Of a DNA stretch of 48,164 nt, positions 7,034-11,372 are shown piece after piece; positions within the stretch are counted from its first letter, which is position 1, and every line of letters starts with the position of its first letter. This DNA comes from Thermoleophilia bacterium (GTDB lineage Bacteria > Actinomycetota > Thermoleophilia > Gaiellales > SKUG01), in NCBI GenBank assembly GCA_025964435.1, contig JAOPYV010000164.1:1-48164 (forward strand), given 5' to 3'. Made by a program: the position numbers and the translations under genes. The notes under the pieces were generated by a model that was not told the DNA's origin, did no database searches, and saw nothing but the letters and a program-made list of their open reading frames with translations.

Positions 7034-7075
7034 GGATGCTGCCCGTACCGCAGTTTTTTGAGGAGCCTTGCCACC

Positions 7076-8749
7076 ATGGCCGACGAATACATCTACGTGA
7101 TGCAGAACGTGACGAAGGTCTATCCGCCGACCAACGAGGTCATCAAGGACATGAGCCTCTCGTTCTACCCGGGCGCGAAGATCGGCGTGATCGGCTACAA
7201 CGGCTCCGGCAAGTCGACGCTGCTGCGCATCATGGCGGGCGTCGACAAGGACATCCGCGGCGACGCCTGGATCGCCAAGGACAAGACGGCGGGCATGCTC
7301 GAGCAGGAGCCCAAGCTCGACGAGACGAAGACGGTCCGCGAGAACGTCGAGGACGGACTCGCGCCGCTGCGCGATGCGCTCAAGCGCTTCAACGAAGTCT
7401 CCAACGCGATGGCCGACCCGGACGCCGACTTCGACGCGCTGCTCACCGAGCAGGCCGACCTGCAGCAGATCATCGACCACGCCGACGGCTGGAACATCGA
7501 CACCAAGATCGATGTCGCGATGAACGCCCTGCGCGTGCCCGAGGGCGACCTTGAGGTGACCAACCTCTCTGGTGGCGAGCGTCGCCGCATCGCGCTGGCG
7601 CGCCTGCTGCTCAGCGCGCCCGACATGCTGCTGCTGGACGAGCCGACCAACCACCTCGACGCCGAGAGCGTGCTCTGGCTCGAGCAGTACCTGGCCAAGT
7701 ACCCGGGCACGATCGTGGCGATCACCCATGATCGCTACTTCCTCGACAACGTGGCCGACTGGATCCTCGAGCTCGATCGCCAGAAGTACTTCCCCTGGAA
7801 GGGCAACTACACCGGCTGGCTCGAGCAGAAGGCCGAGCGCATGCGCCTCGAGGAGAAGTCCGACAAGACGCGCCAAAAGACGCTCGAGCGCGAGTTCGAG
7901 TGGATCAAGCAGAGCCCGAAGGCCCGCCAGGCCAAGAGCAAGGCGCGCATCGCCAACTACGAGGAGCTGGTCGCCCAGCAGAACACCGCCGAGATCGGTG
8001 GCTCGGTCATCCAGATCCCGATGACCAAGCGCCTCGGCGACGACATCGTCACGTTCGAGATCGTGTCGTAGGCGTTCGGCGACAAGCTGCTCTTCGAGTA
8101 CCTCTCCTTCACGCTGCCGCGCGGTGGCTTCGTCTGCGTGATCGGCGCGAACGGCGCCGGCAAGTCGACCTTCATGCGACTGCTCGTCGGTCAGGAGCAG
8201 CCCGACACGGGCACCGTCAAGATCGGTGAGACCGTCGACCTCGGCTACGTCGACCAGGGCCGCGACTCGCTCGACCCCGAGAAGACCGTGTGGCAGGAGA
8301 TCTCCGGCGGACACGACATCATCGAGTTCGGCAAGCGCGAGATCCCGAGCCGTGCGTACGTCGGCAAGTTCAACTTCAAGGGCTCCGACCAGCAGCAGCG
8401 CGTCGGTGACCTCTCCGGTGGTCAGCGCAACCGCGTGCACCTCGCCAAGCTCATCAAGAACGGCTGCAACGTGCTGCTGCTCGACGAGCCGACCAACGAC
8501 CTCGACGTCGACACGCTCCGCTCGCTGGAGGACGGCATCGAGCAGTTCCCGGGCAGCGCGGTGGTCATCAGCCATGATCGGTGGTTCCTCGACCGCCTCG
8601 CCACGCACATCCTCGCCTTCGAGGGTGACAGCGAGGTCGTCTGGTTCGAGGGCAACTTCGAGCAGTACGCCGAGGACCTCAAGCGCCGCAAGGGCCCCGA
8701 CGCCCTCGAGCCGACCAAGATCAAGTACCGCAAGCTCGTCCAGCAGTAG
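7076..8749 (+). pseudogene. ettA: EttA-type ABC-F ATPase interrupted by an in-frame TAG
   Basis: From the ATG at 7076 (GAGGAG upstream) the reading frame covers 557 sense codons plus one internal TAG at 8069-8071 (codon 332), close to the usual EttA length of about 555. Domain 1 has GYNGSGKST, LSGGERRRIALARL and [11 protein letters not shown]. The linker KARQAKSKARIANYEEL follows. Domain 2, downstream of the TAG, has [23 protein letters not shown] and [11 protein letters not shown]. EttA binds the ribosomal E site and gates elongation in response to ATP/ADP. Both halves remain in the same frame with intact motifs, and the TAG sits where homologues typically have Lys before (G/A)FGD, consistent with one AAG to TAG change. 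Recent inactivation, readthrough or a sequence error are all possible. Confidence 0.9.
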
Positions 8750-9455: not shown

Positions 9456-11372
9456 ATGGACCGACGCTCCCAAATGCGCCGAATCGCGCGATGGTGGGGT
9501 CGAATGTGCCCTGTGGCATCGATCCTGCTCGCGGCTGCGCTCGCCGCGGGCCTGGGACATGCCCCTGCGGATGCCGCGTCGAGCGCTGGCACGATCGTCG
9601 GTGCAGAGGTCCTGACGGCAGTGACGGTCGATGCGACCGCCTGCGCATCCGGGGTCGCTGGCCGCACCGACTTCGGCGCCCTGCTCCCCGGGGTGGCGAC
9701 CGTGACCACCTCCGACTGCACGGTCGGCTTTGGCTCGAGCAACTCCGCGACCCAGCTACGGCTGCGCCAGGAGGACGGCGCAGGCGTGGCGATGTGGCAG
9801 GAGAACCGTGGGACGTTGGACACCGGCTTCAGCGCCGACGGCATGCTCGCCGAGCCCTTCGTCGCCGGCGCGACGACGATGACCACCGCAGAGGCAGTCG
9901 TCGTCCAGCCCGATGGCGCGATCGTGATCGCCAGCGCGTGCGACTCCGGGGGCGGCACGGGAATCGATGCATGCGTCGTCCGTCTCCTGCCGAGCGGCGC
10001 TCGCGATGGGTCCTTCGGAAGCGGCGGACTCGCGATGTTCCCGTTCGTCCCGGGCGCTGTCGTCGACGCGGTGACATCGGTCGCGCTGCAACCCGACGGG
10101 AAGATCCTGGTCGGCGGATCCTGCACCGGAGCTGCCGCCACGAACATGGACTTCTGCCTCGCTCGCCTCCTCGTGGATGGCACGCTCGACACCTCCTTCG
10201 CCGGCACCGGCTCGATGCGTCCCGTCGTCGTCGCCGGTGCCTACGACGAGCAGGTGGACGAGCTCGTCGTCTCGCGGAACGGTGCGATCGTTGCGGCTGG
10301 CACCTGTGGCTCGGCGCCCGCTGCGTTCTGCGCGGCGCGCTTCACCTCCTCCGGCACGATCGATACGGCATACGGCACCAACGGGGTGACGACGGTGCGC
10401 CTCACGACGGGGACGGCCGACAATCGCGTGTCCGCAGCGGTCGAGCAACCTGATGGGCGCCTGGTCCTTGCCGGCTCGTGCGAGGACTCCGCCGGAACGA
10501 CCATGACCGATGCCTGCGTGCTCCGCCTCACGATCAACGGGCTGCCCGACACGACGTTCTCGGGTGACGGACACATCGTCATCGCCACCGTTCCGGGAAC
10601 GGAACCGGACCTTGCTGCCGACGTCGACCTGCTCAGCGGCGGGTCGATCCTCACGACGGGGAGCTGCTCCGTCGCAGGGGTCGGGGGCAACTGCTACGTC
10701 CGACTGACATCGACCGGCATCCCGGATGCGTCCTTCGGAACGGGCGGGATCGTGCGCAACGTCGTGACGCCGAACTTCTCGGTGGGTCGGTCGACAGCCG
10801 TGGTCGGGAGCCGGATCACCACCGCAGCGTGGTGCCTCGATGCTGCCCTGACCAACATCGAGACCTGCGTGTCGCGCCATCTCCTCGATGGCTCCTTCGA
10901 CACGACCTTCGGCGGCGGCACGGGATGGATGCGACTGTCGCTCGCGCCCGCCGCGGGCAACGAGTACGGCAACGTGGTCGCGGCGGGACCCGATGGCAGC
11001 TTCGTCGTCGGCTCGTCGTGCGAGGTCGCCGGCAACGGCAACGACACCTGCATCGCGCGCTTCGCCGGGGGCTCGACAGTCTCCCAGTACACCCCGACAA
11101 CGGCTGACTGGAGCTCCGTCGGCACGAGCCACTTCGCTGCCTGCCTGCACGGCACGGTGAATGCGGCACCGACCTGGACACCGAACGGAAGCTGCGCTGT
11201 CGGGAACGGCGCGTGGTGGAACGCGGTGCCGACGACGGCGACGATCATCGCCTCGGCGACCTCGGGGGAGACCGGCGCCTCGGCATCGCTGCGCTTCGGC
11301 CTGCGGACGCGCGCCGACCAGTCGCCCGGGCGGTACGTGGCACCGATCGTGTTCGACGCGATCGCTCCGTAG
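9456..11372 (+). CDS. secreted delta-60 repeat protein, seven Cys-paired repeats inside a split beta-domain
   Basis: From the ATG at 9456 the product is 638 residues; the track start at 8928 is spurious, and the ATG at 9474 is an alternative. An Arg-rich N-region and a hydrophobic core form a signal peptide ending near HAPADA. Seven repeats of about 60 residues follow the delta-60 pattern (LDTSF or DGSFGSGG, then QPDGKILVGG, then xCxARL). Every repeat contains exactly one Cys pair 7-14 residues apart (SCTGAAATNMDFC, TCGSAPAAFC, SCSVAGVGGNC). The segments before and after the repeats (VDATACASGVAGRTDFGALL; SASLRFGLRTRADQSPGRYV) look like two parts of one beta-domain. It probably folds as an extracellular propeller. 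The MFS gene starts 12 nt later. Confidence 0.85.
   Translation: MDRRSQMRRIARWWGRMCPVASILLAAALAAGLGHAPADAASSAGTIVGAEVLTAVTVDATACASGVAGRTDFGALLPGVATVTTSDCTVGFGSSNSATQLRLRQEDGAGVAMWQENRGTLDTGFSADGMLAEPFVAGATTMTTAEAVVVQPDGAIVIASACDSGGGTGIDACVVRLLPSGARDGSFGSGGLAMFPFVPGAVVDAVTSVALQPDGKILVGGSCTGAAATNMDFCLARLLVDGTLDTSFAGTGSMRPVVVAGAYDEQVDELVVSRNGAIVAAGTCGSAPAAFCAARFTSSGTIDTAYGTNGVTTVRLTTGTADNRVSAAVEQPDGRLVLAGSCEDSAGTTMTDACVLRLTINGLPDTTFSGDGHIVIATVPGTEPDLAADVDLLSGGSILTTGSCSVAGVGGNCYVRLTSTGIPDASFGTGGIVRNVVTPNFSVGRSTAVVGSRITTAAWCLDAALTNIETCVSRHLLDGSFDTTFGGGTGWMRLSLAPAAGNEYGNVVAAGPDGSFVVGSSCEVAGNGNDTCIARFAGGSTVSQYTPTTADWSSVGTSHFAACLHGTVNAAPTWTPNGSCAVGNGAWWNAVPTTATIIASATSGETGASASLRFGLRTRADQSPGRYVAPIVFDAIAP

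What the first reader, a model, noticed from the sequence alone, without database searches (positions are those of the whole stretch)
9456..11372. Seven delta-60 repeats, each carrying its own Cys pair
All seven repeats contain exactly one Cys pair at the same place, spaced 7-14 residues apart, just after the QPDGxIxxxG strand and before the (A/V)RL strand. Ordinary delta-60 repeats lack these Cys. If delta-60 repeats form propeller blades, this would be a seven-bladed propeller with a disulfide staple in every blade.
Basis: partly seen in the sequence, partly recalled or inferred. Interest (0 to 1): 0.52.

Follow-up and report, generated by a model that had tools for sequence, protein, structure and literature searches.

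The report
Secreted propeller with seven cysteine staples
This gene encodes a secreted protein shaped like a seven-bladed propeller in which every blade carries its own pair of cysteines, probably a disulfide staple; such stapled propellers turn out to be an all-or-none subtype of a known bacterial repeat family, and here the propeller is plugged into a second, undescribed domain that also carries other propeller types.

Summary
The ORF at 9456-11372 (638 aa, signal peptide, TIGR02608 / DUF5122 repeats) has seven repeats, each with exactly one Cys pair at the same two places (i to j spacing 8-12, not up to 14; the QPDG motif is in three repeats only). AlphaFold2 (pLDDT 88, pTM 0.86) gives a closed seven-bladed propeller; each pair lies at the end of strand B and the start of strand C, in the same register in all blades. 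Bond distances could not be measured. Over 1030 delta-60 blades fetched, the two Cys occur together or not at all (212 both, 16 one, 802 neither), and by protein nearly all-or-none (29 stapled, 101 plain). They are the only columns that clearly differ between the classes. Stapled proteins also occur in Betaproteobacteria and a Leptospiraceae genome. A staple in nearly every blade is known in other folds (plant CRINKLY4, PfCyRPA). New variant of a known kind; ligand unknown.

The parts
9456..9575 (+). signal peptide, residues 1-40 (MDRRSQMRRIARWWGRMCPVASILLAAALAAGLGHAPADA)
   Evidence: sequence pattern; predicted helix 3-32; cleavage site inferred
9576..9800 (+). N-terminal half of the host beta-sandwich domain (residues 41-115), with C63 and C88
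   Evidence: profile from paralogues hits 39-114 at 77 bits; contiguous with the C-half in L059, L162, L163
9807..9854 (+). half repeat RGTLDTGFSADGMLAE: probable outer strand that closes blade 7 (velcro)
   Evidence: partial repeat hit 118-130 to the D-strand columns only; last repeat lacks that part; strand 130-133
9807..11075 (+). seven-bladed delta-60 propeller (residues 118-540)
   Evidence: TIGR02608, PF17164; AlphaFold2; PDB fold search
9939..9974 (+). Cys pair of blade 1 (C162-C173)
10122..10157 (+). Cys pair of blade 2 (C223-C234)
10305..10331 (+). Cys pair of blade 3 (C284-C292)
10479..10517 (+). Cys pair of blade 4 (C342-C354)
10665..10694 (+). Cys pair of blade 5 (C404-C413)
10833..10868 (+). 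Cys pair of blade 6 (C460-C471)
11019..11051 (+). Cys pair of blade 7 (C522-C532)
11079..11369 (+). C-terminal half of the host domain (residues 542-638), with C563 and C580; ends in ...PGRYVAPIVFDAIAP
   Evidence: profile hit 119 bits; 18 copies in the own genome

Best explanation
A secreted two-part protein. A lineage-specific beta-sandwich 'host' domain is split by a closed seven-bladed delta-60 propeller inserted in one of its loops. In every blade a Cys pair joins strands B and C at the base of the B-C loop, most likely as a disulfide. In the usual propeller topology that loop lies on the top face, the common ligand-binding face, so seven staples would pin seven variable loops and hold each blade together outside the cell while the rest of the blade sequence drifts. 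The host domain acts as a common carrier on which the genome displays different propellers (plain delta-60, stapled delta-60, YCF48/BNR) or a LamG domain; I take the whole to be an extracellular binding or adhesion protein. Shown: repeats, Cys pattern, all-or-none rule, insertion and interchangeable inserts. Predicted: fold, strand positions. Inferred: oxidised state, binding role, surface display.
For: Cys pattern. Model pLDDT 87.9, pTM 0.86, with Cys in strands B and C of each blade. Both-or-none Cys in 1030 blades: 212 / 16 / 802; 25 proteins with every blade stapled, 100 with none (0.02 all-stapled proteins expected under independence). Only the two Cys columns differ strongly (Jensen-Shannon 0.87 and 0.89, next 0.17); in plain blades they are mostly small (S/A/T and A/V/G), and the loop is not enriched in His/Asp/Glu, which favours a staple over a metal site. 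All seven pairs are kept although the blades are only 33% identical to each other. Signal peptide; two Thioredoxin_4 (DsbA-like) hits in the genome. Insertion: N- and C-halves 2-4 residues apart in L059, L162, L163. Other inserts. All delta-60 inserts forming one clade of the host-domain tree is rejected, p 0.0095. B-C loops on the top face: PMC8916777.
Against: S-S distances were not measured; the constant register offset of two residues could mean diagonal rather than facing Cys. No VKOR found in the 88% complete genome. No ligand, localisation or neighbouring partner gene. The host domain has no significant PDB fold match, so 'beta-sandwich' rests on the predicted strands alone. Poor support in both trees.
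Confidence: 0.68

Rival explanations
1. The Cys pairs are metal or cofactor sites: seven two-Cys sites on the rim of the propeller bind a soft metal or other ligand.
For: Paired Cys on a loop base could bind a metal; the protein is exported.
Against: No other ligand residues go with the Cys: H/D/E in the loop 0.130 in stapled and 0.162 in plain blades, His about 0.01 in both. Loop length between the Cys varies, spacing 5-13 in the sample.
Confidence: 0.1
2. The Cys pairs have no current function: the blades were copied from one Cys-bearing blade and simply still carry the Cys.
For: All-or-none distribution is what blade copying would give; in Burkholderiales examples blades are 73-76% identical.
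Against: In the window protein the blades are 33% identical on average (minimum 12%) yet all 14 Cys remain; L158 and L084 likewise, 36% and 31%. Only 5 other Cys occur in 11,678 aa of stapled propellers.
Confidence: 0.1
3. The protein is an enzyme rather than a binding protein, with its active site between the propeller and the host domain, as in CylK.
For: The best PDB fold match is CylK (7roo, E 3e-16), a seven-bladed propeller enzyme whose active site lies at a domain interface.
Against: CylK has an N-terminal Ca-binding beta-roll, absent here; no sequence match to CylK listed for the protein or the profiles; no conserved catalytic residue was found; inserts of other fold types share the host domain.
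Confidence: 0.1

Closest known systems
delta-60 repeat proteins (TIGR02608) / DUF5122 beta-propeller (PF17164)
   Same: Repeat family, above both curated cut-offs; seven blades
   Different: Cys pair in every blade; propeller inserted into another domain. 101 of 130 sampled delta-60 proteins are plain
Betaproteobacterial (mainly Burkholderiales) stapled delta-60 proteins (L082, L088, L090, L091, L093, L096, L106, L158 and others; unnamed)
   Same: Seven blades, one Cys pair per blade in the same two columns
   Different: No host domain; most end in a conserved dockerin-like C-terminal segment instead; often in tandem arrays
Plant CRINKLY4 (CR4/ACR4) ectodomain, PMC4617170
   Same: Seven repeats, each C(X10)C on neighbouring antiparallel strands, thought to be disulfides in a propeller
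   Different: Crinkly repeats with CWG motif, TNFR-like domain and kinase; presumably convergent
PfCyRPA (PMC5349852)
   Same: Secreted propeller with a disulfide inside five of six blades (crystal structure)
   Different: Six blades, sialidase fold
CylK (PDB 7roo, PMC8916777)
   Same: Closest solved fold; seven-bladed bacterial propeller fused to another domain
   Different: Ca-stabilised enzyme; no per-blade Cys described in the passages read; no sequence similarity found

Membership tests
delta-60 repeat (TIGR02608) / DUF5122 (PF17164) | profile score above the curated cut-off | tested here: met
   188.8 vs 76.5 bits; 89.4 vs 27 bits
delta-60 repeat (TIGR02608) / DUF5122 (PF17164) | tandem repeats of about 60 residues | tested here: met
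   seven repeats, period 56-62
beta-propeller fold | closed ring of four-stranded blades | tested here: met
   by prediction only; fold matches to propellers
stapled delta-60 subtype (named here) | both Cys columns filled in most blades | tested here: met
   7 of 7
stapled delta-60 subtype (named here) | disulfides formed | not testable with these tools
   no coordinates, no experiment
CRINKLY4 crinkly repeats | C(X10)CWG motif and kinase domain | tested here: not met
   second Cys followed by VVR, LAR, AAR, VLR, YVR, VSR, IAR, never WG; no kinase domain
sialidase / BNR propellers (as PfCyRPA, YCF48 paralogues) | Asp-box / BNR or PSII_BNR profile | tested here: not met
   no such hit for the window protein; paralogues L055, L057, L047 (minus strand) have it
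CylK-type alkylating enzymes | Ca-binding beta-roll and sequence similarity | tested here: not met
   fold match only; no sequence match listed
any named family for the host domain | Pfam or NCBIfam profile hit, or PDB fold match E <= 0.001 | tested here: not met
   no Pfam/NCBIfam hit on the domain (one sub-cut-off pilin hit in L173); no PDB match under 0.001

The most novel reading that the evidence does not exclude
The host domain is an unnamed 'socket' domain with one loop into which whole domains of unrelated sequence (stapled or plain delta-60 propellers, YCF48/BNR propellers, LamG) have been plugged and exchanged repeatedly, giving each genome about 20 surface-display proteins; stapled delta-60 propellers are one cross-phylum module among them.
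Probability: 0.5. Interest if true: 0.6.

Novelty: new variant of a known kind. Interest (0 to 1): 0.45.

Why it matters
A repeat family nobody seems to have worked on (no hit for 'delta-60 repeat' and one passing mention of DUF5122 in the paper library) has a sharply separated subtype in which all blades carry a Cys pair. That is a clean natural comparison for what per-blade disulfides do in a propeller, and a natural template for stabilised designed propellers. The split host domain with exchangeable inserts gives a lineage-specific set of about 20 secreted proteins whose role can be tested.

Tried and rejected
Single origin of the stapled propellers: tested, not rejected and not shown (p 0.41 on the host-domain tree; p 0.51 on propellers). 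PDB sequence relatives: none for the protein, only weak WD40/NHL-like matches for the profiles. Named family for the host domain: none; the weak pilin hits are below any threshold. VKOR as oxidase: not found. Host domain outside the family: 5 of 399 Thermoleophilia genomes, all of one family. A possible second delta-60 gene at 17.6 kb (tblastx) was not confirmed by profile. Plasmid hits are delta-60 proteins of Deinococcus, Streptomyces, Azotobacter and others; their Cys were not counted.

Full report
WHAT IS THERE. The ORF from ATG 9456 to the stop at 11370-11372 encodes 638 aa: a signal peptide, then about 75 residues, then seven delta-60 repeats, then about 97 residues. TIGR02608 and PF17164 are hit above their cut-offs. 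Each repeat has one Cys pair: 162/173, 223/234, 284/292, 342/354, 404/413, 460/471, 522/532. Spacing is 8-12.

FOLD. AlphaFold2 on a 37-row alignment gives mean pLDDT 87.9 and pTM 0.86. The strand list is a regular set of about four per blade. A half repeat before blade 1 (118-130, matching only the last columns of the repeat profile) and the missing same part after blade 7 indicate a velcro closure. PDB fold matches are mostly propellers, first CylK. In every blade the first Cys lies at the end of strand B and the second near the start of strand C, and the difference of the two offsets is 2 in all seven. So loop length varies but the register does not. Distances could not be read; an offset of 2 leaves open whether the pair is directly opposite or diagonal.

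IS THE PAIR A RULE? I fetched 80 loci from genomes of many phyla plus relatives of the window's genome, built a repeat profile and looked at the two columns. Of 1030 blades, 212 have both Cys, 16 one, 802 neither. Among proteins with at least four scorable blades, 25 have every blade stapled, 100 none, 5 are mixed. The other stapled ones are mainly Burkholderiales and other Betaproteobacteria, and one Leptospiraceae locus. Apart from the two Cys columns the blades are alike in both classes; in plain blades these columns are mostly small residues, S/A/T and A/V/G. This fits a simple staple across two neighbouring strands. The pairs persist in the window protein although its blades share only 33% identity, so they are not just a trace of recent blade copying. 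The scan used a Cys-bearing profile, so the proportion of stapled proteins is not representative.

The sequences before and after the propeller are two halves of one domain. Profiles of the halves find both ends in nearly all complete paralogues, with inserts of 215-850 aa; in L059, L162 and L163 the halves are 2-4 residues apart. Inserts: 27 plain delta-60, 6 stapled delta-60 (one, L064, with 14 stapled blades), 15 YCF48/BNR-type, one LamG-like by sequence look (L173), 3 none. A standalone model of the uninterrupted domain has pLDDT 83 and is nearly all strands, with no significant PDB match. The own genome (88% complete) has 18 C-halves; in 399 genomes of the class only the five of one family have it. 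On the host-domain tree one clade for all delta-60 inserts is rejected (p 0.0095), so inserts have been exchanged, though the tree is weakly supported. Two stapled members are seen in the own genome: the window gene and the partial L054. The class is Thermoleophilia: a same-class locus, L184, is identical over 3870 bases to a record named Solirubrobacteraceae.

HOW IT WORKS, MOST LIKELY. Exported protein; each blade's B-C hairpin tied by a disulfide at the base of a loop that in the usual topology faces the top (ligand) side (PMC8916777); the host domain is the common carrier. DsbA-like (Thioredoxin_4) genes exist in the genome, VKOR was not found. Binding or adhesion is inferred from fold, export and gene-family expansion; no ligand evidence exists. 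Neighbours (GH3, ABC-F, MFS, alpha/beta hydrolase, subtilase) do not suggest a pathway.

COMPARISON. It is a delta-60/DUF5122 protein by test. Per-blade staples are known in plant CRINKLY4 receptors, seven repeats with C(X10)CWG (PMC4617170), and PfCyRPA, five of six blades (PMC5349852). It works like these but is not a member: no CWG, no kinase, no BNR hit. I found no description of stapled delta-60 propellers or of the host domain in the library searched. Verdict: new variant of a known kind.

Noticed in passing
window 7058-8749: ABC-F (EttA-like) gene with an in-frame stop at 8069-8071, so that it reads as two ORFs, each with ABC_tran; sequencing error or real break.
   Followed up: partly
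L055, L057, L047 (minus strand), L164, L168-L172, L176, L180: Paralogues with the same split host domain but a YCF48/BNR-type propeller insert of about 285 or 600 aa (one or two propellers).
   Followed up: partly
L059:1638-2162, L162:609-1091, L163:358-930: Uninterrupted versions of the host domain; L162 has a LamG domain before it.
   Followed up: yes
L173:486-1865 (minus strand): Host domain whose insert looks like a LamG / concanavalin-like domain; its C-half weakly hits a CPR Pam pilin profile (E 0.013, below cut-off).
   Followed up: no
L064:2-3139: Member with 14 stapled blades, presumably two stapled propellers in one host domain.
   Followed up: no
L088:661-7027 and neighbours: Tandem array of stapled delta-60 genes in a Betaproteobacteria genome; proteins end in a conserved dockerin-like segment (C.LDIDGDG ... 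QCGM) that also hits alone at other places in such genomes.
   Followed up: partly
L056 (G000:C201:8000-12000): Host-domain N-half and C-half fall in separate ORFs; possibly a disrupted paralogue or assembly error.
   Followed up: no
L077 (minus strand 601-2472): Otherwise plain delta-60 paralogue with a single stapled blade (1 of 7).
   Followed up: no
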